DNA of 64,000 nucleotides from Rhynochetos jubatus (taxonomy: Eukaryota > Chordata > Aves > Eurypygiformes > Rhynochetidae): positions 5,766,001 through 5,830,000 of the forward strand of contig CM050655.1 of the NCBI GenBank assembly GCA_027574665.1. Reading direction: 5' to 3'. This document shows, piece by piece, positions 42,401 to 61,660 of the stretch; the stretch's first letter is position 1; the number at the start of each line of letters is the position of its first letter. The translations under genes were made by a program, and so were the position numbers. A model generated the notes under the pieces. It saw only the letters and a list, made by a program, of their open reading frames with translations, was not told where the DNA came from and did not search any database.

Positions 42401-45400
42401 TGGGAGGGACCGTAAAGACCATCCAGTTCCAATCCCCCTGCCATGGGCAGGGACACCCTCCACTAGACCAGGTTGCTCCAAGCCTCATCCAGCCTGGCCT
42501 TGGACACTGCCAGGGATGGGGCACCCACAGCTTCTCTGGGCAACCTGTCCCAGTGCCTCCCCACCCTCTCCGGGAAGAATTTCTTCCTGATGTCCAATCT
42601 CTATCTCCCCGCTTTCAATTTAAACCCATTACCCCTTGTCCTGTCACCACAGGCCCTTGTAAATCCCCCCCAGCTTGCATCCATTAGGCTGAGTTTCCAG
42701 ACATGAGGCAAAAATGAATTAAAAAAAAAACACCTTCAGTGGAATTTATAGTGAGAAACCACCTCAGTGCACGGAGCCAAGTGCAGCTGCTTCAACCGCT
42801 GCCTCGGAAGAGGGAGGGATGGAACCTCAAAGCCACAGGCTGACTTCCTGAGGGCAGCAGCCTGGAAGCCCGCTGGCCACAGCTGCAGCGCCCCGACGGT
42901 TCCCCCCACGGCAGTCACAAGGGTCTCTAAACACGAAACGGGCCACCACCGCAGTGCGCAAAATCCCCGTCACGCTGTGGCTGACCTGAGGAACGTGTTC
43001 GGTATTGCAAACACCAGTAAAGGAGACAGCAGCCCCAAACAAACGACCCCAGACCCGCGTCTGACAGTGCCCTATCCTGCACTTTTGCTGTTAAGCCCCA
43101 AGTGGTGAGTTACCTTTGGAGCACGGCCTCTCCTCCCATCCTGCGAGACACTCTGAAGTTTTTCAGTCAGCGGAAGAGCAAACGAAAAGGTTTTCCCGGT
43201 TCCTGTTCGAGCTTGAGCAATTAGGTCTTTGCCATCGTAAATGGGCTGAAAAGTCTTCACTTGCACAGGGAACAGGTATTTTACACCTCGAGCTGCAAGA
43301 CAATCCAAAGAGGTTCCATTAAAAGGTGCCAATCCTACCACAAGCTGAGCAAACCGTTCGAAGCCCTCATACGTAACTAGCCCGAAGTCGGAGGACACGT
43401 CGCGTCAAACCCTGCGCGCAACAGAGGGTGCAAGTCAGAAGAAACGCAGGTGCGTTTGCTCTCCCACCCTAGATCAAACTGTATTCCCCCTTAAACACAC
43501 AGCTGGGTATTCACAATGAAATGAAGCCGCCTTTGTGTCTGGAGTAAGACAACCAGAGGGAAAGAACCCCCAAAGTTTTTCCCAATACATCCCAGGATTT
43601 CGGTGGTGGCTTGGTTTGGAGGGCGGAGGAGGCCGTGAGGGTGTTTATTTTTAGAAATTCTAAAGCCTGAGAGAGATTTTGCTCAGTGGAAATGAATCCA
43701 TCCATCCAAGAGAAACTTCTGAGCAAGGAAAACGTACAGCACGTAGGAGAGTTGTGCCTGGGAAGCAAGAATCAGTTTCCCAACACAGAGAACAAGAACC
43801 CTACAGTGGTTACGTCCACAACGAAACTAACCTAGAAGAGGCACGAAAATGCCCCAAAGTATGGGAATAACCAGAGACAATCTGTTCACAGGAGCCAAAC
43901 AGTCTTCACACAGGAAACACCATTACCCTCGTTTCAGAGGTTACATTGTAGGCAGCGCATACCCGAATTTCGAAATAAAGACATACAAAAAATAAAACGA
44001 TGCTGAGGAGAAGAGAAACGCTGTCTCTTAAAAGTGTGTCTGTAGGAACAACGACACCACGGAAGAATAAACCTGCCTTAAAATGATGGAACTTGAAACG
44101 GAACAAACCGGAAGATCTGTTCCTACTGACACCAGCAGGTTCTCTGAACCCACAGTGACCGCTCACGTCCGTGTTCTTACCCCACAGCAAACGTAAGATG
44201 GTTTAGGACAGTTTTACCCTTGGCTTCTGCCTCCGCTCGCCCAGCGGGTAACAGCCTGCAATTCTGGACAAACGTTTACAGAAGTTTCTTTTGCCACATG
44301 AACTAACCTTTGAGAAGGTTGATCGTGTTGTGGGAGAGAGGAAAATTGGAGAATGCGCCTTCTTTTGCTTCTTCTGTCAGCTCCTAACAGGATAAAAGGA
44401 ATAAAACCCCCAACTTATTACCCCTAAGAGATGAACAAATAACGATCCTCACACAGGCACACAAGAAAAGCTGTGTGTTTACTTCATCGCTGCAGTTTTA
44501 CCCGCTACCTCCTTTCTGTTTCCCAAAACCCTTGTGATGCAGGGACTTCACCACTAAAAGCATCATCAAGAAGTTTCACTTTACACTGTGATAAGAAGCT
44601 TGAATCCAGCCATCCCGTACCAGAAGACAAGACACACAGACACAGGCGGCATCAGTCAGCATGACGATTCCTGCAAGGGCATCCTGGGTTTACATCACTC
44701 CACTGCTCTCGTTGCCCGCAGCCACCCCTTCAAAGCCACGGCTATCTCGTCCCTCATTAGGTATACCTGCACCACCTTTAGGTCACGTACTTACCTAAAC
44801 CTCACTCTTTGGCTTCTGTTTTGGAGATCCAAGAGATCACATCATACATCCAGTGAGCAAAAAGCACTCTCCTGATCCGCATTCCCACCGTAAACACAAA
44901 CTACCCACAGAAGGCCCTGTATGGGCCTTCCCAGCCCTCACCCACCAAGGCTCTGTACAGCACCCTGCGTGCGTTATTAAGCCTGCTCGTTACCAGCGCG
45001 CCTCTAATGAAGCAAGAGAAGGGCTGGGCGGGGAGCGTGGCTACCTCTGCATCGCTGTCCTGCTCTCCGGCTGCCTCCTCGCCAGACGCGCTCCGGGCTG
45101 CCGGGGACGTCGCGCCGTTGCTCTCAGTGGAGGATGGTTTTGCCGTATCCTCAGAACCGTTGTTCTTCTTGATTGTTTTCGTCTTCTTGGGCTGGGGGGG
45201 CTCAAGGTCACTGTCGCCCAGGCCGCTCTCCTCGGGCTGGGCCTGCTCGCCCTCGGCCTTCCCGCGCCGCTTCGCCTTCTCCTGCCGCTTCAGCTTCTTC
45301 TCCTGGGTCTCCACCTGACGGGCGAGAGCAGGAGTTACGCGGAGGAACCAACAACGCGCCGTTATTCGGTTTAAACGCCTGAAAGCCCGGGCTCCCCCCT

Positions 45401-46798: not shown

Positions 46799-49700
46799 TT
46801 AATGGTCAAATGCTCTGTCAAAGCTGCGTTTCTGGCCTCTGCTTCTGAACCGGCTTCTACCACCGTTACCACGCCGCCCGTTCCTGAAGCCGGAGAAGCT
46901 TCGGCCATCTCCTCCGCCTCCTCCTCCTCCTCGTTGTGCTTCTACTAATTCGGGTAATTCAGTCGCCGTGCGCAAACGCCATTGTCTCGAGTCTTCCCAC
47001 TTTGCCTGTTGAAATAAAGTCGGGCGCGTTAGGTTACGTTCTAGGAACGCGTATACGGGGTATTTCGTAGTTACTCACCTGGCTCAGCTGCAAAGGAAAC
47101 ACTGTGAGCTAACACAGGGCATTCCAGTCTCCAACCCAAGTGGTCAATACTGGGTTTGCAATTTCCAGTTCAAGAGTCGACTGAGCCCACCTCAGATACT
47201 GCGGGACAGAGCTGAGACCCACCTCACAGCTTTACCCAGCAGCCTCATCAGGAACCTGTCTCCCCACCTCCCGGTTATTAAGCATACCACTCATTATTAC
47301 TGATCACAAACCCACACCCCCAGCTCCCCTCTCATCCAGAAGCAGAAATTGTTTTGGGAGCGAAGGAATGCCCGGGCCTGAGGGTAGGGAGATGCACTAA
47401 GGGAGAAATAGCTGAAGGAAAGACTGGAAGTCTCAGGAATTTTGGCATGGGAATATTAATCCTGGCAAGCAAAAACCTGGAATTCACTTTTCTGTGGACA
47501 GAATTCCGGGTCAAGAGAAGGGGTGGAATGGAAAAAAGGGGCTTTTGACAGCGTAAGGAGACCCGCTGCCCACAAAGGTGAATCCAGCAGCAGTAACGGG
47601 GGTGGATTGTTCACCACTCAGGGCACAAGTCTCAAGCTACAGGTGTTTCAGAGTTGGATACTGTAGGAAAGGAACACTGTATGCTTCATCTGTTCATCCA
47701 ATTCCTTCAAAGTCATCCCTTTTGCCGCTAGAGAAGGCAGAATCCAGGCTACATAATGTTTTCTGCCTAAGCTAGGCCAGCCAGTTTTATCTACCGTCTG
47801 CTGTAACAGGAAATTTCAACGAACGTACCTCTATTTCCTTTTGGTCTGCTGCAGGGACATCGAAGCACACACCCTAAAGAGAGAGAATCGTTTTAATAGA
47901 CGCAAGTCTAGCCTTTAATTGACTGAAATAAAGAAAACAGACTGGAAATCTATGTGCTAGGACAAACAGTTTTCCATTTCAAAGTGTTTTTTTTAAAGAT
48001 ACTTCAAAATCTTTGAACAGTGAGTCGCATCAACACTCGGTGTTCTCGAAACACCGGTACTTGCACCGCCTTACTGTTTTCCTCAGACACACACATTTTT
48101 CTTTCCTCTGCACAGCCTGTGCTTCCAATTTCCATTTTCTAGCTCTTTAACAACGAGCTTATAACCCTCTCCATCCTCAACGTGGTCTATTGCCTTCTGC
48201 ATTACTCATTTCGTACATTTCTTCCAGTCGGAAGTTTTAATCTATACTAAGAAATGTATGCGTCCAGTAAACTGAGTGTTTAGGCGCGGACCGAAAATCT
48301 CAAGTTAAACTACGTGAATGATTAAGCACCTTCAACACGGGTATGTATGGCCACGTAGGTGTGCAAAAGCACCAAAAATAAACCAGCAGAACAAGGGATA
48401 AGAGAATGGCATGTGCTGACATCCCGTAAATAAATGAAGCGATCGAGCTCATGGCATCTCCCTGTACAGTTTTCCTGACCGGGGTATGGTGAGAAGCAAG
48501 CAATACACCCCGAACAACACAAAGCTGGAGCAAATCAGCAGCCATGCCTCCCAAAAGCAGGACGTAAGCATTCCTAGTCCTCTGTGTCACCACAAATAAT
48601 ACTGGACAGCCTGTCTGCCCACAGATACTCACGTTTGTGACAATGCGTACCCACCCTGAGTGAGGGGAATAGCTTTCCTTTAAAGTGACTGTCTCTCAGC
48701 GAGCTTTGCTACACTTGTTAAACACACAGCCCAAAAAGTACCTTCCAGATACCAGAAACAGATGGACAGGCGCCCTCAGAACTGACTGCCCTAAGAAATC
48801 CTGCTCTGCGTTTCGTCCTTCAGGCACAGTAAACACGGTTCGTACCACCTTGGGCCTGTTCTGCTACCCCCACAGCCATGCGCTATACTGCTCTATACTA
48901 CCCCCTCAGCATGCCAGGGGAGCAGTGCTCTAAGCCCCTGAGATGCCTCAGCTCTGATAACACAGACTGAGGCCCGTCCAGGTCAACAAGAGCCTAGAAT
49001 GGGGAAAGATGACCAACATCTCCCCTGACAATTGCTGAGAAAGAGCTGCAACCAGGAGAGCTCAGCAGCAAAGATACAAAAAAAGCTTACCATTTTTCCC
49101 TTGAGGAAACACATTCTGTTTACTTTCCTATCAACGCTGTCACCCAACAGTTCTCGCAGTCTTCGCCAAGCATAGCTCATGTTGTTTATTTCTTCAGAGC
49201 AGTGTAGTATCATTGTAACAAATCCCTAAGGAGTAAGAAATCGGGCACGTTTACACATCTATCAGACAAGAGAAACCTGCTAATTTGCAGTTTATAAACT
49301 AAGTTTTCAGGTGGATGCTGCTACGGGACAGCGGGTGTGTTTATAGCCACTACGGTCTTGCTTGTACCTACATCAGTAGTTCCTAGTGGCTCAAATACAG
49401 TTCCCATCAACAAAATCGTAAGGAGACAAAGAATTCTCTATTCAATGACCACAGGTGTGTTGCTTTGGCTTTTTTTTCAGGCTCAAGACAAACGTTAAGC
49501 CGTACGCCCTTACCACATCCGAGTTCAGCAAGGAGCGCTGTTCGATGGAAGTAGCGCCTGAAATATGGGCTAGAGCTGCAGCCAGAGCATGAACCGGTCC
49601 TTTTTCTTGTATGAGAAGCTGAGCTGATTCCTTGAAATACTCAATAGCAGTCTGAGAAACAGAATCCAGGCACCTAGTAATTAAAGAAAGAAAAAAGAAG

Positions 49701-52700
49701 GATACACTGTTTACTAGGCTCTGGAGCAGAAGGAAAACAGCAGTCCAAGGCTTCCATCGTGATCAGTTCAGAGAGACAGCAACGGGCGATTCAAACAGCC
49801 CAACGAGGAAGACAGGAAGTGACAACAGGTCTTGAGCCACCGAACACACCTCATGGCATCTTTGCTGGAAGCCTTTATGATGTCTGTTGCAGTAGGAACA
49901 CCGACGCGCTTGAACGCAATGCCCTGAAATTTGAAAGAACACAGATGAAAGTTGCAGACTGTAAATGATTCAGTTCTAAAGAAACAGTGATGGATGCCAA
50001 TGAAACAAGCATTTAAAACTATATTTTTTTTTCTCATTTTCACCTTGTAACTCCCAACTTTTGCTACTGAAAATTACAAGGTTAAGTTTACAGGAAAAGG
50101 GGTAAGACTTAAAAGCCTTTTATGCACCAGGTCAGTTTAAATGATCCAGTGGCCTTAAACTAAAATAAATAGAGACCATTTAGGCATATTCCAGGGGGAA
50201 AAAAAAAGAGTCCTACAAATTCGAAATTATTAATTTTAGTCTGGTTTACTTGGATTTACGTACAAATTACACAGCCTTTCTAAATCTAAGTCTTGGGGTT
50301 TCTGTGCCGAGACTAAACCACCTCATCCCAACTGAACGCTTAACTGGTGGGAAAAAACACCATACGGAACAGCGCACAGAGTGCAAAAACGGGAGTAGCG
50401 GTTCCCAGTAAAGCTACACGCATGCAGATCACCCACCAGATGATAAGCCAGGGTGAACGCTGAACTGACATCCTGCTAGCTCCTCATCTCCACAGGTACA
50501 ACCTCAGCAGGAAGGTTTCAGAGCTACCCTAACACTTTACGTTTGAGCGCCGGCGATTAGAAGAAAACAGTACTTTACCGCTTTTTGTTCCACATGTCTT
50601 AACTGATATTCTTCCTTCCGCTGATAAAAACAGATACAGATCCCAGTCCGCCCAGCTCGACCAGTGCGTCCAGAGCGATGGATATAGGACTCCACATCCT
50701 TCAAAATAAACAGCCGTATGACTTATCTGACTTATTGTAATTTAATCGATTCACTGCATTCACTTATTAGAAGCTATTACAGTCAACAATACACAAGAGC
50801 GGCACCAGAGAATTAAATTACAAACATGGTTTCGCTACAGTCAAACGAATAAGCCTTTCCATAACCCTCTGAAATCCACAGCTTGAAAGCCAGAACCATA
50901 AGCATGGATCAACTATGTCTTATTTTGGCATCACCCCAGAAAATATGAGAAGACCTTTGGAGTGTGTATACTTCATCACAATCCCACTCACCCTCCTGCG
51001 TATCAATCTCAGCATGATGACTGATATTAATAGCAAATTCACTGAAAAGAGATCTTATTTGTTTAAAACCCTCTTCACTTTAGCCAGTGTTCTCACTGCT
51101 GGGGTCCCCTCCTCATGTATGCCCCTACCTAGTGAATCGCTCTTGCAAGACAAAGCCCTTCTTCACTTACGAGGCTTGGAGCAACTTGATCTAGTAGAAG
51201 GTGTCCCTGCCCATGGCAGGGGGGTTGGAACTGGATGAGCTTTAAGGTCCCTTCCAGCCCAAACCATTCTGTGATTCCCACTGCTTCCAGACTTGCAGTG
51301 ACCATAATATGGCCTTCAAGGGCGGGGCTTTAAACAACCTTAAGGGAAGGCATTTTAAAGAGACCATCTTTAAGCATACTAGGGACTGATGCACTCTGAA
51401 AAAATCCTCTGAGAAACTGCTTCTGAATAGGCCATTCCTTACCCCGAAACGCAACACTGATATATTCTGTGTGGTGATTATCGTCACCCGATAGCATTTA
51501 CTACTTGAAAACAAACTTAGAGGTTATTACAAGACACTCAACATAACCACCTCTTACCTTTGGTGGTGAACACTGCACAACCAAGTCAACTTCAGGGATG
51601 TCTAAACCACGGGCAGCCACGTTGGTTGCAACCAGCACTTTAAATGTACCATTCCTAAAACCTTTCAGTGTGATCTCTCTTTGCTTCTGAGGAATGTCAC
51701 CGTGCAGTGACTGGCAGTCCTGAAAAACAGTATTATTACAGGATTGTACCAAAAGCCAAGGCAGTGCTGCATTTTCTGGTCAGTTTTGGATACAGTATCT
51801 TGGTATTTGATAGATACAGAAGAACCGAATTATCAATGTTATTATTAGGCATCTTTACTCAGTACTTCTTATTCATATACCTCAAAGACCTTTAACAGAG
51901 GTAGGAAAACAGAATCGCAACACTTGCCTTACCTCCACCTCTACCTACTGTGACCTATGAAGACAACTCTGCCCTAACTTGCCATCCGCACCACTGTGCA
52001 AGCCTTGGCTCTTTCAAAATGGGTATCAGTTTACTCAGGCCTTCTCATTCATAGACTTTCTTTTTCCCAAAATAGTGTTCTTAATCCCCCTTAATACATT
52101 AATTTCCCCCGCTACCAATTAAAACCCAAGTGGTCCTAAAAAACCCCAGTGAACTACAGCTTCAAAGACTGTATTTCACAGCTCGCCTGGAGATGACTGC
52201 CATGTTTTCCACATCTAAAGAGGGAATGATTTGAAAACAACACTAACACGATGCTAGGATGCTGTGTAGACACAGAATCCAACAGCATTTTTTCAGACAG
52301 TTTTGGATTAAGGTCAGCAGGTAAATGGACCAGGCATATACTCTGTTAGCGACTGTTAATAGGCTAAAACAGAAACACCTAAATAATTCCCTCCTCTTAT
52401 CTGCCAAGATCAGAGTTCTGCATTGCCTACGCGAGATCTGCTATCGCTAACACCACCAGTAACACAGGATAAGGCTTCTCGCTCAGGTTTAGCTGTTAGC
52501 GAGGTCATCCAGGAGTGTGGGAGAAACACAGGTGTGGCAGATGAGAAAGCTGCTCCTTTCCCTGGGAACATGCTGCCCTACTGCTTTCTAGACATAACCC
52601 AAACCCTCCTCCTCAGTGAAAACACATACAGAAGTGGTAGTTGCTGTGATACCACCGCCAAAACCAAGCATGCAGTGCCAGTGCCGCTACACATCACAAA

Positions 52701-55700
52701 CACTGCACCGCGACACCAACGACTTATTTTCCACCGGTGCTGGAGTGTGCCGTACCACAAACCTTGGGAATACACTGAAGCTCATTCCCAAGGGATGGCA
52801 GATTGCATGCTTTCTGTGTATACATCTTTAAACTCTTCATAACAGCTGATAAACATCTCAATGAAAATACAAACACAGCTTCTGTTACATTACCGCTCTA
52901 AGCCCTAACTGCACCCCCTCGGCAACAGTAATTCACGTCAGCTTCACAGCTCAGGCGCTACTATTCCAGTACCATGACCCGTTATCCTAGTAGTTCTCCA
53001 AGTCTACCACCGTTTTTAATCCAAGACAGTTCTCTCTACAGAACAATTAATTCACAACTGCTTCCTTTCACACCAATGAGAACTCTGCCTTTAGGACAAA
53101 AATCCTTCATAGCCCAGTATCTGTCAGTGCAGCCCAGTCCTGAACACTATAATGCTGTAAACTTTCAACGAGTTGGGTTTATTTTTAAAGGTTCTTTCTG
53201 GCAGTTTTGAAACCACATGACCACCTGCAAAAGCCTGCCTTATCCACTTCAAAAGTCTCTCTTTAAACCTGACTCGGCATAGGTGTGGCATCAACACAAG
53301 GTTAACACACCTCTGACAGGATTTGTTACTTAATACAGACGATAAAATACCTGTTTGATTGAAGCATTCAGAGCCAGTTCGTTTGCCTCCTTTTTGGTCT
53401 CACAGAAGACAATGGTCCGCCCTTGGCTGCCACTGTAGACCTGAATGACGTCTGCGATAACCGCAGCTCTCTGAGACCAGTGACACTCTATCGCCAAATG
53501 CTATGGAAAAGAATGCCAGTGTTTAGCTTACATAAAGACACAACATTCTTTTTGAACACATCTGAAACTGTAATATCCAGAAATACTAAAGAGTTACACA
53601 GTTTCCTGATGGGCAAAATATGCTAACTCACGTTCCTGGAACACGCAAAATCCAGAAGGCTCTTATGTCCACCACAATTAGTCTAACATTAAGCAAAATA
53701 ATTACAGTAAGAGGGGACCAAAAAAAAGAGATGACAGCCTACAAATCACTTTTTTAAAGTAGAAAAAAAACCCCCACAGGAGACGTCACACCATTTGACT
53801 GGAGGACAGCCAGGGGTGCAGGATTTTATCACAGTTCTATCAACTACAGCTTTAAGTCAGATAAAGGGAAACAAACAAATACAGCGTGTTAAAAGCTTTG
53901 TTCAAGCACAAGATTAACGTTCCTTCAACCCCAGTGATACAATTACGATGCGTCAACTGAGCTGACCAAGTAACTGCTAAACAGTACTTAGCAGAAATAG
54001 GGCCTTATTTTATCAAGTAAAGATAATTAATTCCGGCTTCTAGCACATATGTGTGTGCATATATGTAATTACCTTGCTATGGTATTTATTGTATTGCAAG
54101 GAAAGGCCTAGTGAGGTGAGATACCATGGGAAGTTTGAAAAAACTCCTGTACAGAGAACAGCTGAATTGTGGTGTTGTCTGTGAGGTCTGTGGTGATTTA
54201 CAAGAGCCAGGTTGACGTTAATGTATGCAAAACTGGTAACTCAACCCTCCCTCTACCTGAGATGTCTATATGGTTATCAGATGCTGTGAGAACAGAGAGA
54301 GAGATGATTGAAAAAATAATTCTTGAAACAACTTTCAACACCATTCTGATAATGTACCTTCAGATGGGATGACTATTTGTAGCGTAAGGGAAAAGGGAAG
54401 AGGCCAGAAAACATTTCACATTAGACAGGTTACTCACATTGACTGTTGTGGCGGCCTTTTGAGTTCTTTTCCCAATCAGGTCAATCTGTTCATATTTAGA
54501 CTTCATGTATTTCTTAGCCACATCATACACCCAGTGTGGGCAAGTTGCAGAGAACAGTAGAGTCTGGGGATTGTCTTCAGAGTCTTAAAACACAGAACAA
54601 TGTTTCACAACCTTCGTACGTTTCATCTTACAGACTATACAAGTTATTAAAAATATGGGGTCAAATATCAGTATATAAAATAAAGGAGGCAATTCTGCTT
54701 TTAAAATGTATGCATTACTACCACCTGGGGAAAAAATACTCTAGGAAGTCTCAATATTTGCAAGATTAGGAAGTTACTATGCCGAAAACCCAGTCTGTTT
54801 TCAGGTGGTAAAAAGCTTCTAATTCCCTTTAACTGGCAGAAGTCCAAGTACAACTTATCGACAGGTGTCAAAGAAAGTTCTTTACAGACCCCTAGATACT
54901 GGATTTTAAGCTTTGCAAAGGTCCTGTGAATGACTCCCACTTCTTCAACACTTCCTCACCAGCTGTTTCTCCTACATTCCGCAGCAGTCAGTCATTTCTA
55001 AACAAAGCCACCTTGCAACTTTCAGAAAAATATACCTGAATTGTAGCAGACTAAATTATTACTCATATTTCCTACCAATTCTTTAAATATTGAGGTTACC
55101 TTTCTTGTATGCAACTCGTAAAATGTCTTCCACTTGCTCAGCAAATCCCATGTCCAGCATCTGGTCGACTTCATCAAGGACAACGTGCTTGACCTTGGTC
55201 AGGTCCAGCTTGCCACTCTGAACATGGTCTTTGATGCGACCGGGTGTCCCAACCAAAATGTCAATGCCACTTCTCATGAGATCAACTGATAAACGGGACA
55301 GAGCAGAAGAGGAGTTGGCAGTGAACTAGGGAGGAGTCTCTAACGCAGAAACACGTGATAGCTAAGTAATGCTGAAATAGCCTCTTAAACCATCCTTAAG
55401 CACTCTCCTCACAAATGTCAGAACAAATGATGAACAGGGGGAGAAAGCTCAGGGGACAAAACAAACCAACCCCAAAACCGGTCAGCTCAAAGTTCTACTG
55501 CTCTTCCAAAAGGAAAAAAGATTTCCCATCTCCCTTCCTTCTCCCCATGATTTAAATTAAGCGGGAAAGAGCTTCTTTTAACATACTTCGGAAATAGCTC
55601 TTCTCAAATTGTCTACCTTAACTGGAAACTTAAAAAACCTTTATTTATTTGATCATCCAAATTACTGAAATCAGCTCCTTCTGGAGTTCTGCAGGGAAAA

Positions 55701-58700
55701 AAAAAAATCACCCCTAGTATCTCAAGATACAATATGATGAAAGCGCTTGTTCTCATTCCTGCTCTCACTTGCCCTGTTTACAACCATCATGACAGCAAAT
55801 TAGGCTGTCACAGTAAAGAAACACTTCTCCACTTTAAAAATGGTGCAGATATCCCCTATCACACACAAAAACCCACTCACAGCTCTAAGACTAAACATTT
55901 TTTAAAAAACAGTTTTAAAAGAGCCTGTAGGGACAGGATAAGGGGTAACGGGTTTAAATTGAAAGCGGGGAGATTGAGACTGGACATCAGGAAGAAATTC
56001 TTCCCGGAGAGGGTGGGGAGGCCCTGGGACAGGTTGCCCAGAGAAGCTGTGGGTGCCCCATCCCTGGGAGTGTCCAAGGCCAGGCTGGATGAGGCTTGGA
56101 GCAACCTGGGCTAGTGGAGGGTGTCCCTGCCCACGGCAGGGGGTTGGAACTGGATGAGCTTTAAGGTCCCTTCCGACCCAAACCACTCCGTGATTCTATG
56201 ATTCTGTGAATATATAATTGTTTGCAAGAACCTAAACCCCAATACTGTGTATACAGACAGTATAATCTCTCATTTTAAATTAAAGTGCACGAGTAGACAA
56301 GGAACACCAAGAATATCATCTGAGAGCTACGGTTATTTCTCACCATAAGAAGATATGTTTTGCGTTACTGATTTTCCCATGAATATTCTCCAGTTCTTGA
56401 GTTAAAAGTGTGTGTTTGACAGGACCCAACACTATTTCTCAAATATGTCAGTCCATCAACATTTCAATGATTAGTGACATCACTTACTTTGTCCATTATA
56501 GGGGGTTCCTCCGTAAAAACAAGCTACTGTTAGCTGTCTTGTGATGTCCTTGAAATCTTTGGCAACCTGGTTTGCCAGCTCTCTAGTTGGACAAAGAACT
56601 AGCACCTAGACAGAAGACAAACACATGTTCTCTCAGCATGGCTTCTGCCAAGAAACTACTCGACTTCTAATCATTACTTTAGGCTTGACAATTTACATGA
56701 TTTAAAAAAAAACTGGTTTCAACAGTTATCTGAGCAAAGATTAGAGAAACACACTGCTCAACGTTCTTGTCACATCACTGATCTCCATCAGCACACAGTC
56801 ATGTAGGACAGGCTAACTTCTTTTTAAATGAGATGGACAGCGGGTGCTTAAATCTGGCACCAGTAGTTTGACAAAAGTAACCTTAAGATCCTTATCCTCT
56901 TACTTCTTCCAACACTGAAACACATGACAAAACAGAAAGTAGTAGTGTACTGTGGTAGAGTGAGGCCTGAAATCTTTTCTTATTTGAAGATTTGTGACTC
57001 CCTCAAAGAAAGCTTCCCCTTCTCCGCAAGCCTGGGTCACATCCAGAGCCAGCGTTCTCAGTCAGACAGCCAACATGATGGGCAGATGCAAATACAACGG
57101 CTACAACTAGTTTTGGAATGGGTTTCAGGCAATCTACAAGATGGATAACACGATGAAATAAACAGACCAAAAAAATAAATCCAGTATTAACGGGATTATG
57201 ATAAGCTCTGGCCTATCTAGTTTTGGAGGTGCCGTCATTTACGGCATCCTAAGAACATACAAGGTGTTCCCCAGCAGAATGCAGGCGGCTCACGATGAAT
57301 CTGCATTCTCTGGAGCAGAAGCTTCAGTACCTGGTGGTGATCCTAGCAAAAACTAAGCCTATTTTTAAAACATCCTGCAATGTACGTGTCTAAACAAACG
57401 TGTTTAAGCAGACAGGTTTTATCAATCAGAAAAAGTCACTAATCTGTTATTAATCTGGGAGAAAAACAAGCATCAAGCAACCGCCAGACCTGAAGAAAAC
57501 TAAACAGGAACACGTTGAACACCTGTAGTTTCGGTCTCCCGCTAAGCAGAAAGAGGAATTAACAAGTGGATCGTGTTCTTTACTCTTGATCAGAGGGTAG
57601 GAGGCAGCACAGGACGCAGGCAAAGCCCAATGAACCCCGCTTCCAAATCATCTTTCACGTGGGTTAGCTGACCCCTGCACAAACCTGAAGAACTTTTCCA
57701 ATGGGTTAAAAACCTGGCTCACTCAGACAACAGAGAAAGGAAAATCAGCATTCTAACTAAGCCCAGTTACCTTCGGTGGACGGCCCCTTCTTCTTTCCGG
57801 TGAGTCTCTTTGAAGCTTTTCAGTTAAGGGAATAGCAAAAGAGAAGGTTTTCCCTGTTCCAGTTCGTGCTTGAGCAATGACATCTTTGCCAGAAAATACT
57901 GCGTTGAAGGTCTTCACTTGCACAGGAAACAGGTATGTCACCCCTCGAGCTGTGAGAATTTCAGCAGATTTCCTTAGTACGATCATTTTACGAGGGTTCT
58001 TGCGTACTCTTCAGAGAAAGTTATCCCAAGCAGAACTTCCCTCACCTCTACAGTATGTCAGGGCTGTACCATCCCCTCTGCTGATTTATGTAATTGCAGG
58101 GGCCATCTGTAGAGACTGCCCTGGGGCTTTCTCTCCCACTTCATACCACCCGACAGAGCTAGCTGGCACACGCCAAGTGACCAGCCTTCAATGAAAGCCT
58201 CTAAGTACTGTGGATTTATTGATGTAATACTCCCCACTTACCTATGAAAATCATCTCCTTTCAAACACAACATATGTCAGAACCACTTCCTCTCTTAATT
58301 CATACTAACTCATGCACAAACTAACATCAAAGATATTTAATATAACTGGGTTTCCTTTACTCAAGATGAATTACCTTTTAATTGAAAAATTCTCGCACAG
58401 AACTGATTTTTTTTTGAGCTTATGTCCTTTAAAATTATACCGTAAAGGCTAAACTGGGCTCTATTGCAAACAGAAATATGTTGTGCATCACACGTGACAG
58501 AGATCATGTACTTTCTGTGCTCACATCACGCCAAGAAAATTACCTTGAAGAAGCTGAATAGTTTCGTTGGAAATAGAAAATTTGGAGAAAGCACCTTCTT
58601 TCTGTTCTTCAGTCATGGTCTGTTAGGTAAAAAATAAATCAGATATAACATTCCACATGGATATCATAAGGTCATCAGGATACACCAGGTAATGGCACAG

Positions 58701-61660
58701 GCACTGGTGTCATACCCAAGGGTCAGATGTTCAGTGACAGTATCACGATTATATTTCAAACTCAGACAAAAGTGACCTGTAATTTAAGACTATTTCACAC
58801 CTAATACATAACACTGTAAATGCACAGCATCCACGTTAAAACTATGAGAACTCAACAGAATGTTGGAATTTTAATTATTACCAATGGCCTAACATGCTGT
58901 TGCAATATGCAAGAATGCGGCTTAATATCTTGCCTATTTCCTACTTCCCAACTAACACAGTGATCTACAGATAGAGAAATCGATCCCAAAATACTAACAC
59001 AGGAGGTAAAGCATCCAATGCATCTACTTAGTAACGCACCACTTCCATCTAGGTTTCAACAGCGACAGCGACAGCAATGCTATGTGTGAGGAAAGAATGG
59101 TAACCCTGGAAACCACGGATGCTTTGTGAGGCATCAATTGGAACTAGAAACAAAACTAAGCAACAGCAGAACACACCGCTATGAAGGCTTTCCAAAGCAA
59201 ACCCTAGGTACAACAAGGCATGGTTCCCTTCAGAAAACGTGGGTCATGTCAAGCAAGTTTAAAGGAACCTAAATCAAATAGAAATAGTCAGTCTCTAGCT
59301 AACCCCAATTCTCATTTCACTAGAGAAGAGTCATGACACCGAAAAAAAGTCAATTACACTGTATTTGTGGCAATTACAGTCCCACCTAATGATGTTAAAT
59401 CATATTAAAGCACCACCTCACTGCAGCTTGCCCACCTGCCAACAGCTACCACCGTACTGGGCTGTTGAAGCGAGGAAACCACGACGCGCTGATCCACAAC
59501 TTCAGGACTCGCACAATTTTAAGTTTTTGCAACTAAGCAACAGAGGGGACAGCTCAAGTACCTTTAAACCCTGAAAGTCTACAACAGACTGGATAGGAGA
59601 AAAAAGACAGGAAAGATAACCCATTCTAAATTTAACCTTGCAGCAACGCCGGAGTTGCAAGCTAAACACATCACTACAGCTAAATCAGTCGGTGCTTTTA
59701 CCTGCTCTGGCTCACTGTCGTCACCACTGCTTGATGATTCGCTGGCATTTCTGTGCCGCTGCTTGGAGGTGGATCTCACGCCCAAGGAGGCTGATTTCTT
59801 CTTCTCCAGGCTCTCTCCGCTCGCATCACCATTCTGTTTAATCACACTCCTAGATTTCTTGAGCTTCGGGGGGGAATCGACATCCTCCTCGGACTGCTCG
59901 CTGTCATCCATATTGCTCTTTCTCTTCAGAGACTTGTCACAGCTTCTAGATTTCTTCTCTCTTTTATCCTTCTGGTAAGGGCACAGAGAATGAAACTTCC
60001 CAATTAATACAGCAGAGTGATTTACAGATAGAGAAATCGATCCCAAAATACTAACACAGGAGGTAGAGCATCCAATGCATCTACTTAGTAACGCACCACT
60101 TCCATCTAGGTTTCAACAGCGACAGCGACAGCAATGCTATGTGTGAGGAAAGAATGGTAACCCTGGAAACCACGGATGCTTTGTGAGGCATCAATTGGAA
60201 CTAGAAACAAAACTAAGCAACAGCAGAACACACCGCTATGAAGGCTTTCCAAAGCAAACCCTAGGTACAACAAGGCATGGTTCCCTTCAGAAAACGTGGG
60301 TCATGTCAAGCAAGTTTAAAGGAACCTAAATCAAATAGAAATAGTCAGTCTCTAGCTAACCCCAATTCTCATTTCACTAGAGAAGAGTCATGACACCAAA
60401 AAGAAGTCAATTGCACTGTATTTGTGGCAATTACAGTCCCATCTAATGATGCTGAATCATATTAAAGCACCACCTCACTGCAGCTTGTCCACCTGCCAAC
60501 AGCTACCACCGTACTGGGCTGTTGAAGCGAGGAAACCACGACGCGCTGATCCACAACTTCAGGACTCGCACAATTTTAAGTTTTTGCAACTAAGCAACAG
60601 AGGGGACAGCTCAAGTACCTTTAAACCCTGAAAGTCTACAACAGACTGGATAGGAGAAAAAAGAAAGGAAAGATAACCCATTCTAAATTTAACCTTGCAG
60701 CAACACCGGAGTTGCAAGCTAAACACACCACTACAGCTAAATCAGTCGGTGCTTTTACCTGCTCTGGCTCACTGTCGTCACCAGCGCTTGACCTTTTGCT
60801 GGCATTTCTGTGCCGCTGCTTGGAGGTGGATCTCACGCCCAAGGAGGCTGATTTCTTCTTCTCCAGGCTCTCTCCGCTCACATCACCATTCTGTTTAACC
60901 ACACTCCTAGATTTCTTGAGCTTCGGGGGGGAATCGACATCCTCCTCGGACTGCTCGCTGTCATCCATATTGCTCTTTCTCTTCACAGACTTGTCACAGC
61001 TTCTAGATTTCTTCTCTCTTTTATCCTTCTGGTAAGGGCACAGAGAACGCAAACACACGCATGTGATCCGAGCCACAGGGAAGGGAGAAGACACGGCAGA
61101 ACGCTTACAACTCTGGTGTACTAGTGGGGGCGGGGGGCTGGCACAGCGCGACCGGTGGCTCCCTGCCGCCGTGCAACTGCCGCCTGGAGGCATTTCCCCG
61201 ACCACCGGACAGCCGAGCCTTCATTTTCGGGACTCTGCCCCCCGAAAGCCCTCCCCGGGCCGCCTTGCGACGCGAACAGCCCCACGCCAGCCCCGGCAGG
61301 CCCCGCCCGGCCGTCCCCATACGAGGCCGGCCTCACGGGAGGCCCCGCCGCCGCGCACGTGGCCGGCCCGGCAGGCCACGCCACGCCCGGTGGCCACGCC
61401 GGGCAAACCCGTCCCGACCCCAGGCCACGGGGAGTGGAGAGGGGAGCGACACGAAGGACACGGAGGACAGGAAGGACGCGATCCCCAGGGTGTAGGCGAG
61501 GCGGCGCGGCCAGGCCGTACCCGTCCGCGAAAGGCCCCGGAGCCCTTCCCGGTACCTTGCGCCACTGGCGGCTGCTCTCCAGGGTTGACTCGGGCTCCGC
61601 AGTGGAATCGGAGTCCGATTCGGTCCCGCTGCTGGTGCTTAACCGGGTGGCCTCAGGCAT
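46799..61660 (-). CDS. DDX50: DDX50, nucleolar DEAD-box RNA helicase (Gu-beta), with a duplicated exon 2
   Basis: DDX50 is the tandem paralogue of DDX21, a nucleolar RNA helicase. Coding exons: 61556-61660, 60759-61028 (exon 2B), 59702-59971 (exon 2A), 58544-58619, 57771-57949, 56488-56605, 55100-55285, 54438-54583, 53351-53500, 51558-51719, 50579-50698, 49850-49923, 49514-49673, 49091-49225, 47829-47873 and 46799-47005. From exon 3 to exon 14 every exon equals its DDX21 counterpart in length. Protein: 800 aa with both exon 2 copies, 710 aa with one (human DDX50 is 737). Motifs: [67 protein letters not shown], then GUCT and a tail with seven glycines and [39 protein letters not shown] and the exon 2 pattern [19 protein letters not shown] favour DDX50, as does position upstream of DDX21. 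However, [13 protein letters not shown] and GFVTMIL look DDX21-like, so the symbol rests partly on synteny. The frame is open for 175 codons upstream of the chosen ATG. Confidence 0.88.
51171..51277 (+). mobile_element. CR1 LINE 3' fragment (DDX50 intron)
   Basis: A short, ~107-bp CR1 3' tail in + orientation: gaggcttggagcaacttgat, the cctgcccatggcagg block, ending aaaccattctgtgattcc. It lies between DDX50 exons 51558-51719 and 50579-50698. Confidence 0.85.
53388..53448 (-). other. Tract in DDX50 exon 8 identical to DDX21 exon 8 (putative gene conversion)
   Basis: These 61 bases are identical to 39398-39458 in DDX21, inside homologous 150-bp exons that differ at roughly a quarter of positions just to the 5' side. 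The tract encodes the motif IV region ([17 protein letters not shown]). Neighbouring exons differ at many silent sites, so local homogenisation is the simplest reading. Confidence 0.6.
55921..56208 (+). mobile_element. CR1 LINE 3' fragment (DDX50 intron)
   Basis: CR1 3' end in + orientation from gagcctgtagggacaggata to a terminal tgattctatgattctgtga, the diagnostic CR1 octamer repeat tail. About 290 bp, between DDX50 exons 56488-56605 and 55100-55285, opposite to the gene. Confidence 0.92.
59702..59971 (-). CDS. DDX50: DDX50 exon 2, copy A (3'-proximal copy)
   Basis: A 90-codon phase 0-0 exon encoding a Lys/Ser/acid-rich disordered segment: [17 protein letters not shown] at the start, [17 protein letters not shown] in the middle and [15 protein letters not shown] at the end. 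Its acceptor has new upstream sequence from the duplication junction, including a tattaat that could serve as branch site. The serine/acidic cluster looks like a casein-kinase-2-type target (inference). Confidence 0.85.
60759..61028 (-). CDS. DDX50: DDX50 exon 2, copy B (5'-proximal copy)
   Basis: The same 90-codon exon with six amino-acid differences from copy A: Val for Leu at position 15, Val for Ile at 44, Val for Ala at 50, Lys-Arg for Glu-Ser at 78-79 and Ala for Ser at 82. The last three make [10 protein letters not shown] more basic and less acidic than copy A. This copy keeps the sequence context of the intron next to exon 1, so it occupies the original acceptor environment. Confidence 0.85.

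What the first reader, a model, noticed from the sequence alone, without database searches (positions are those of the whole stretch)
58943..61047. In-frame tandem duplication of DDX50 exon 2
Two directly adjacent ~1.05 kb units each carry a complete 90-codon exon with phase 0 at both ends and intact splice sites. Including both adds 90 residues of Lys/Ser/acid-rich disordered segment to the N terminus (800 versus 710 aa). Human DDX50 and the DDX21 paralogue in this window each have only one such segment before the helicase core, so the duplication looks lineage-specific and young. Possible outcomes are a longer N terminus, alternative or mutually exclusive exons, or a silent copy. A false duplication in the assembly is the main alternative, but clustered coding differences make a pure artefact less simple.
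Basis: partly seen in the sequence, partly recalled or inferred. Interest (0 to 1): 0.8.

Follow-up and report, generated by a model that had tools for sequence, protein, structure and literature searches.

The report
Tandem-duplicated exon in DDX50-like helicase
A bird-like genome carries two side-by-side, slightly different copies of one exon in an RNA-helicase gene, which would lengthen the protein's floppy front end by 90 residues; this is a neat but familiar kind of recent duplication, and whether both copies are used needs RNA and read data.

Summary
Two adjacent ~1.05 kb units (58943-59990 and 59995-61047, 97.3% identical) each contain a complete 270-nt, phase 0-0 exon with AG/GT borders in an otherwise intact DDX21/DDX50-type helicase gene: 800 codons with both copies, 710 with one. 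Gene order (KIFBP downstream; a STOX1-like frame upstream, named from memory) makes it the positional DDX50; its core is nearer human DDX21 (recalled sequences). A search of the 1.33-Gb own genome found the exon only here (2 matches). The neighbouring paralogue has one 270-nt exon 2.

Best reading: a young, genuine tandem duplication without long homology at its junction. Copy 2 keeps the donor and the last 19 intronic bases, and the new upstream sequence offers branch-point-like motifs, so both exons are probably spliced in, lengthening a disordered tail that in DDX21 is nearly dispensable for unwinding. Inclusion is inferred.

Against an assembly artefact: no gap, ~2.2% divergence, mostly transitions. 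No reads were available, so it is not excluded. Selection for different exons is not supported. New member of a known kind; low-to-moderate interest.

The parts
59995..61047 (-). Unit 1 (first in the gene): last 19 nt of intron 1, exon 2a, about 764 nt of the following intron
58943..59990 (-). Unit 2: the same 19 nt, exon 2b, about 759 nt of intron
59991..59994 (-). Junction: 4 bases between the two aligned units; no long homology between the breakpoints
60759..61028 (-). Exon 2a, 90 codons, phase 0-0
59702..59971 (-). Exon 2b, 90 codons, phase 0-0
60784..60797 (-). Cluster of 6 of the 9 exon differences (codons 78, 79, 82)
61556..61660 (-). Exon 1 (35 codons, start ATG)
58544..58619 (-). Exon 3, first exon towards the helicase core
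46799..57949 (-). Remaining exons of the gene: DEAD, Helicase_C and GUCT domains, frame open; includes a 15-codon exon starting at 47873
45045..45314 (-). Comparison: exon 2 of the neighbouring paralogue, also 270 nt and phase 0-0, single

Best explanation
A genuine, recent tandem duplication of about 1.05 kb in the DDX50-position gene copied exon 2 together with the last 19 nt of intron 1 (polypyrimidine tract and AG) and some 760 nt of the next intron. Shown: structure, frame, splice borders, divergence, and that no other copy was found in the own genome. Inferred: the event was end joining or template switching, because the breakpoints share no long homology; the second copy drew its branch-point region from the tail of the first copy's intron and from the junction itself; both exons are recognised independently and mostly both included, giving an 800-residue protein with two consecutive disordered 90-residue basic/serine segments before the helicase core. 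The effect is probably mild: more positive charge and more phosphorylatable residues in a flexible tail.
For: Two intact phase 0-0 exons with the same donor and the same last 19 acceptor bases. Scores from a small matrix made of the gene's own other sites (12 acceptors, 12 donors; the exon at 47873 was not in the set): acceptors 4.0 (2a) and 4.8 (2b) against 0.9-10.4, donors 6.1 against 2.0-11.1. Exon search of the own genome: 2 matches, both here (only best candidates are scored by that tool); pair search: 1 match. No N in the window or in the fetched flanks from C8:5,746,001 to an N run at about C8:5,864,482. 18 of 23 substitutions are transitions, with one 5-bp indel and no homopolymer-length difference, which looks like mutation and not read error. 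The rest of the gene is open with DEAD, Helicase_C and GUCT. Human DDX21 without its unstructured 185-residue N-terminal region keeps ~87% unwinding activity (PMC7721647, passages), so extra tail should be tolerated.
Against: No RNA, reads or relative were available: neither inclusion nor reality in the animal is shown. Exon 2b has an upstream AG with only 24 bases between it and the exon, which its branch point must skip or follow and which could weaken it. All 6 codon differences change the amino acid and none is silent, so nothing shows constraint on either copy since the event (with only 54 of 270 synonymous sites this is weak evidence). In recent high-quality assemblies most remaining false duplications lie on the same scaffold (PMC9516828, table passage).
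Confidence: 0.55

Rival explanations
1. The duplication is real, but one copy is skipped or hardly used: the gene still makes mainly the 710-residue protein, and the other exon drifts as a silent passenger.
For: All 6 codon differences are amino-acid changing, none silent; exon 2b lost the original upstream branch-point region and has an AG with 24 bases between it and the exon.
Against: Both copies are open, in frame, with the same donor and last 19 acceptor bases; no stop or border change in either. A disordered tail would drift even when used.
Confidence: 0.2
2. False duplication in the assembly: two alleles of one exon placed side by side.
For: Differences look like SNPs; false heterotype duplications are frequent in vertebrate assemblies and in recent ones mostly on the same scaffold, e.g. 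22.2 of 24.1 Mbp in zebra finch (PMC9516828, passages). No reads could be checked.
Against: No gap between the copies, one of the marks named in that paper; the join lies between non-homologous places with 4 bases between, not at an overlap; no third copy elsewhere; divergence of about 2.2% (24 differences in 1052 positions) exceeds the average heterozygosities in that paper's table, 0.95%, 0.34% and 0.22%, although false duplications favour more divergent places.
Confidence: 0.15
3. Mutually exclusive or alternative exons: each transcript takes one copy, and the two copies are specialising (copy 1 more basic, copy 2 more acidic and serine-rich near its end).
For: Clustered K/R/A against E/S/S difference; net charge +7 against +4; mutually exclusive choice is a known fate of tandem exons (PMC9741552, abstract).
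Against: Both exons are 270 nt and phase 0-0, so joining both keeps the frame and nothing forces exclusion; the intron between them is 787 nt; excess change in the exon is not significant (P 0.07 raw against nonsynonymous sites, 0.41 by codons, 0.59 with clusters merged).
Confidence: 0.1

Closest known systems
Tandem exon duplications in animal genes (PMC9013439, abstract and Results section seen; PMC9741552, abstract and its section on disorder seen)
   Same: Adjacent copies of one exon within a gene, splice sites copied with the exon.
   Different: The human substitution events described in PMC9741552 are mostly ancient, mutually exclusive and slightly less often in disordered segments (23.7% of residues against 28.3% of all); this pair is about 2% diverged, lies in a disordered-looking tail, and has no splicing data.
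Internal repeats of the DDX21 N-terminal tail (human DDX21, sequence recalled)
   Same: The same region of the paralogue has grown by repetition of Lys/acid-rich units.
   Different: There the units are 18-19 residues; here a whole 90-codon exon with its intron is repeated.
Heterotype false duplications in vertebrate assemblies (PMC9516828, passages seen)
   Same: Two near-identical neighbouring copies with SNP-like differences.
   Different: No gap, no overlap-type join, divergence above the average heterozygosities listed there; read depth not testable here.

Membership tests
Tandem exon duplication | Two adjacent homologous exons in one gene, same orientation | tested here: met
Tandem exon duplication | Frame kept (symmetrical phase) and ordinary splice sites on both copies | tested here: met
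Tandem exon duplication | Both copies present in transcripts | not testable with these tools
   no RNA data held
Mutually exclusive exons | One and only one copy per transcript | not testable with these tools
   no RNA data held; nothing seen in the sequence forces exclusion
DDX21/DDX50 helicases | DEAD and Helicase_C core followed by a GUCT domain | tested here: met
   the two solved-structure sequences matched at E up to 1e-40 are both Nucleolar RNA helicase 2
DDX50 (as against DDX21) | Core sequence closer to DDX50 than to DDX21 | tested here: not met
   75.9% to human DDX21, 70.3% to human DDX50; quartet patterns 8/12/6, unresolved (human sequences recalled)
DDX50 (as against DDX21) | Position between STOX1 and DDX21-KIFBP (human order recalled) | tested here: inconclusive
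   Paralogue and KIFBP (Pfam) follow as expected; STOX1 upstream is recognised from memory only, Pfam gave no hit for the fragment tested and the search with the STOX1 family did not complete
Assembly false duplication | Gap between the copies | tested here: not met
   0 N in the window
Assembly false duplication | Half read depth, discordant reads, single-copy k-mers | not testable with these tools
   no reads held

The most novel reading that the evidence does not exclude
A freshly duplicated disordered exon whose two copies are already diverging in charge (K/R/A against E/S/S in a 14-bp cluster) and are used as double or alternative tails that retune a nucleolar helicase, caught a few million years after the event, with a branch point newly made by the junction.
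Probability: 0.1. Interest if true: 0.45.

Novelty: new member of a known kind. Interest (0 to 1): 0.25.

Why it matters
If real, it is a young, easily tested example of how a disordered segment doubles by exon duplication. The duplicated piece carried the polypyrimidine tract but not the original upstream branch-point region, so the second copy had to find a new one. It would let one ask directly whether doubling a helicase's flexible tail changes nucleolar behaviour. If it is an artefact, it is a caution about gene models in chromosome-scale assemblies.

Tried and rejected
Outside copies to polarise the changes: genome contigs and viral contigs gave no relative of exon 2 (prokaryote and viral collections, so little was expected). 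Polarising K78E/R79S/A82S by the paralogue and human proteins: the paralogue and human DDX21 have E at the aligned site, human DDX50 has K-R, and the alignment there is loose; left undecided. Positive selection on the exon: not supported after merging clustered changes. Gene conversion: the longest identical run has P 0.002 with all 24 differences, 0.014 with changes within 3 bp merged (19 events) and 0.10 with those within 15 bp merged (12 events); the bin-variance test gives 0 of 5000 shuffles, 0.023 and 0.80; suggestive at best. A local template for the 14-bp cluster: none by exact match elsewhere in the window. A retrocopy in the genome that would show past splicing: no further exon match. 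Literature: DDX50 with exon duplication, 0 papers; exon duplication, intrinsically disordered, tandem repeat and birds together, 0; tandem duplication, microhomology, exon and bird genome together, 0; tandem exon duplication with bird, 8 listed; DDX50 with chicken, 7 listed; none of these 15 opened. DDX21 with phase separation, N-terminal, nucleolar: 61 papers, 12 listed, none opened. Control pieces from other contigs were not obtained. Structure prediction was not run.

Full report
What is there. The region holds two directly adjacent units in the same orientation: 59995-61047, first in the gene, which runs on the minus strand, and 58943-59990, 97.34% identical over 1053 columns, with 4 bases between them. 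Tandem Repeats Finder lists nothing in 50-64 kb, its longest period being 500. Each unit starts 19 nt before the exon and ends some 760 nt into the next intron. Exon 2a (61028-60759) and exon 2b (59971-59702) are 270 nt each, open, phase 0 at both ends, with AG and GT borders. Of random 270-mers drawn from the letters of the unit's intron, 10 of 2000 are open in a given frame.

The gene. With exons joined at AG/GT borders the frame is open through the DEAD, Helicase_C and GUCT domains. That model has 785 codons; a 15-codon exon starting at 47873 had been missed (borders read by eye), giving 800 with both copies and 710 with one. The two solved-structure sequences matched at E up to 1e-40 are both Nucleolar RNA helicase 2, i.e. 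DDX21 (6l5m, 6l5l). A second gene of the same kind lies next to it (45.6 to 33.5 kb), then KIFBP (Pfam KBP_C). Beyond the window's right end a 771-codon reading frame (window-equivalent 64266-66578) looks like STOX1 from memory; Pfam gave no hit for the fragment tested, and the genome search with the STOX1 family did not complete. STOX1-DDX50-DDX21-KIFBP is the human order (recalled), so the gene is taken as the positional DDX50. In the own genome (1.33 Gb, 148 contigs) a 315-residue core query gave 28 matches: 13 in these two genes and 15 on other contigs at 32-55% identity, so no third close relative appeared.

The paralogue. Its exon 2 is single, exactly 270 nt and phase 0-0 (45314-45045). 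The symmetrical 90-codon exon is therefore likely to be older than the duplication. Human DDX21 (recalled) shows repeats with a period of 18-19 residues in the same tail, so the region has grown by repetition elsewhere.

Divergence. Inside the unit there are 23 substitutions and one 5-bp indel: 9 substitutions in the exon and 14 in about 762 intron positions, 1.8%. All 6 affected codons change the amino acid; with 54 of 270 sites synonymous, that is not remarkable. Exon against intron: P 0.16 raw, 0.80 by codons, 1.0 with clusters merged; using nonsynonymous sites only, 0.07, 0.41 and 0.59. 13 of 14 intron and 5 of 9 exon substitutions are transitions. The longest identical run is 331 bp (P 0.002 raw, 0.014 with changes within 3 bp merged; 346 bp and 0.10 with those within 15 bp merged), which hints at patchy mutation or gene conversion without proving it. 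With a bird neutral rate near 2 per billion sites per year (recalled), 1.8% corresponds to roughly 5 million years, more if conversion has acted.

Junction and splicing. The breakpoints share no long homology, which points to end joining or template switching. The donor of both exons is CAG|gtaaaa and the last 19 intronic bases are the same; their scores lie within the range of 12 other acceptors and 12 other donors of the gene (a small matrix from the gene itself, without the exon at 47873). Further upstream they differ. Exon 2a has one weak branch-type motif (ATCAC, -36). Exon 2b has the tail of unit 1, with perfect yTNAy motifs at -33 and -20, and an AG with 24 bases between it and the exon. 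The -33 motif depends on a base that differs from the matching place in unit 2 (TTAAT against TTAGT), and the A of the -20 motif is the junction base 59991. That these motifs are used is inference after the fact, and the direction of change is unknown.

Artefact or not. False duplications are marked by half depth, gaps between copies on one scaffold, discordant read pairs and single-copy k-mers (PMC9516828, passages). Only the gap could be tested: the window has no N, and the nearest N run in the fetched flanks begins at about C8:5,864,482, some 37 kb away; the left flank is free of N down to C8:5,746,001 (N can also be a stretch withheld by the operators). Against my reading, the same paper's table shows that in its newer assemblies most remaining false duplications lie on the same scaffold (22.2 of 24.1 Mbp in zebra finch). 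As a control, 26 ten-kb pieces of the same contig were scanned (6 flanking, 20 at 2-Mb steps): 2 of 26 lie inside satellite arrays, 0 of the other 24 hold a direct pair of at least 150 bp and 85% identity; 4 of the 26 contain some N. The window tiles and one overlapping piece showed only this pair; pairs that straddle tile edges could be missed, as the tile edge at 60000 itself did. I put the artefact at 0.15.

Function. In human DDX21 the N-terminal 185 residues are flexible, add little to RNA binding and are not needed for unwinding, about 87% of the activity remaining without them (PMC7721647, passages). By analogy an added 90-residue segment should be tolerated and act, if at all, on localisation, condensates or phosphorylation. 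Net charge is +7 for copy 1 and +4 for copy 2. The simplest expectation is inclusion of both exons; alternative use and a silent copy remain open.

Verdict. A correctly observed, probably genuine young tandem exon duplication of a known kind in an ordinary gene. Its interest depends on data not held here.

Noticed in passing
L008 (own genome C8:1000001-1010000): The whole 10-kb piece is a tandem array with a unit of about 472 bp; shifted self-alignments are 96.8-98.2% identical.
   Followed up: no
L021 (own genome C8:27000001-27010000): The whole 10-kb piece is a tandem array with a unit of about 176 bp; shifted self-alignments are 93.2-96.4% identical.
   Followed up: no
33497-61660: Both helicase genes in the window are closer in their core to human DDX21 than to human DDX50 and the quartet is unresolved, so one-to-one orthology with the human pair rests on gene order (recalled human sequences).
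   Followed up: partly
56193-56206: ATTCTATGATTCTG, resembling the 3' end of bird CR1 elements (recalled); the only hit to ATTCTATGATTCTA with up to one mismatch in the window. It is slight support for a bird source.
   Followed up: no
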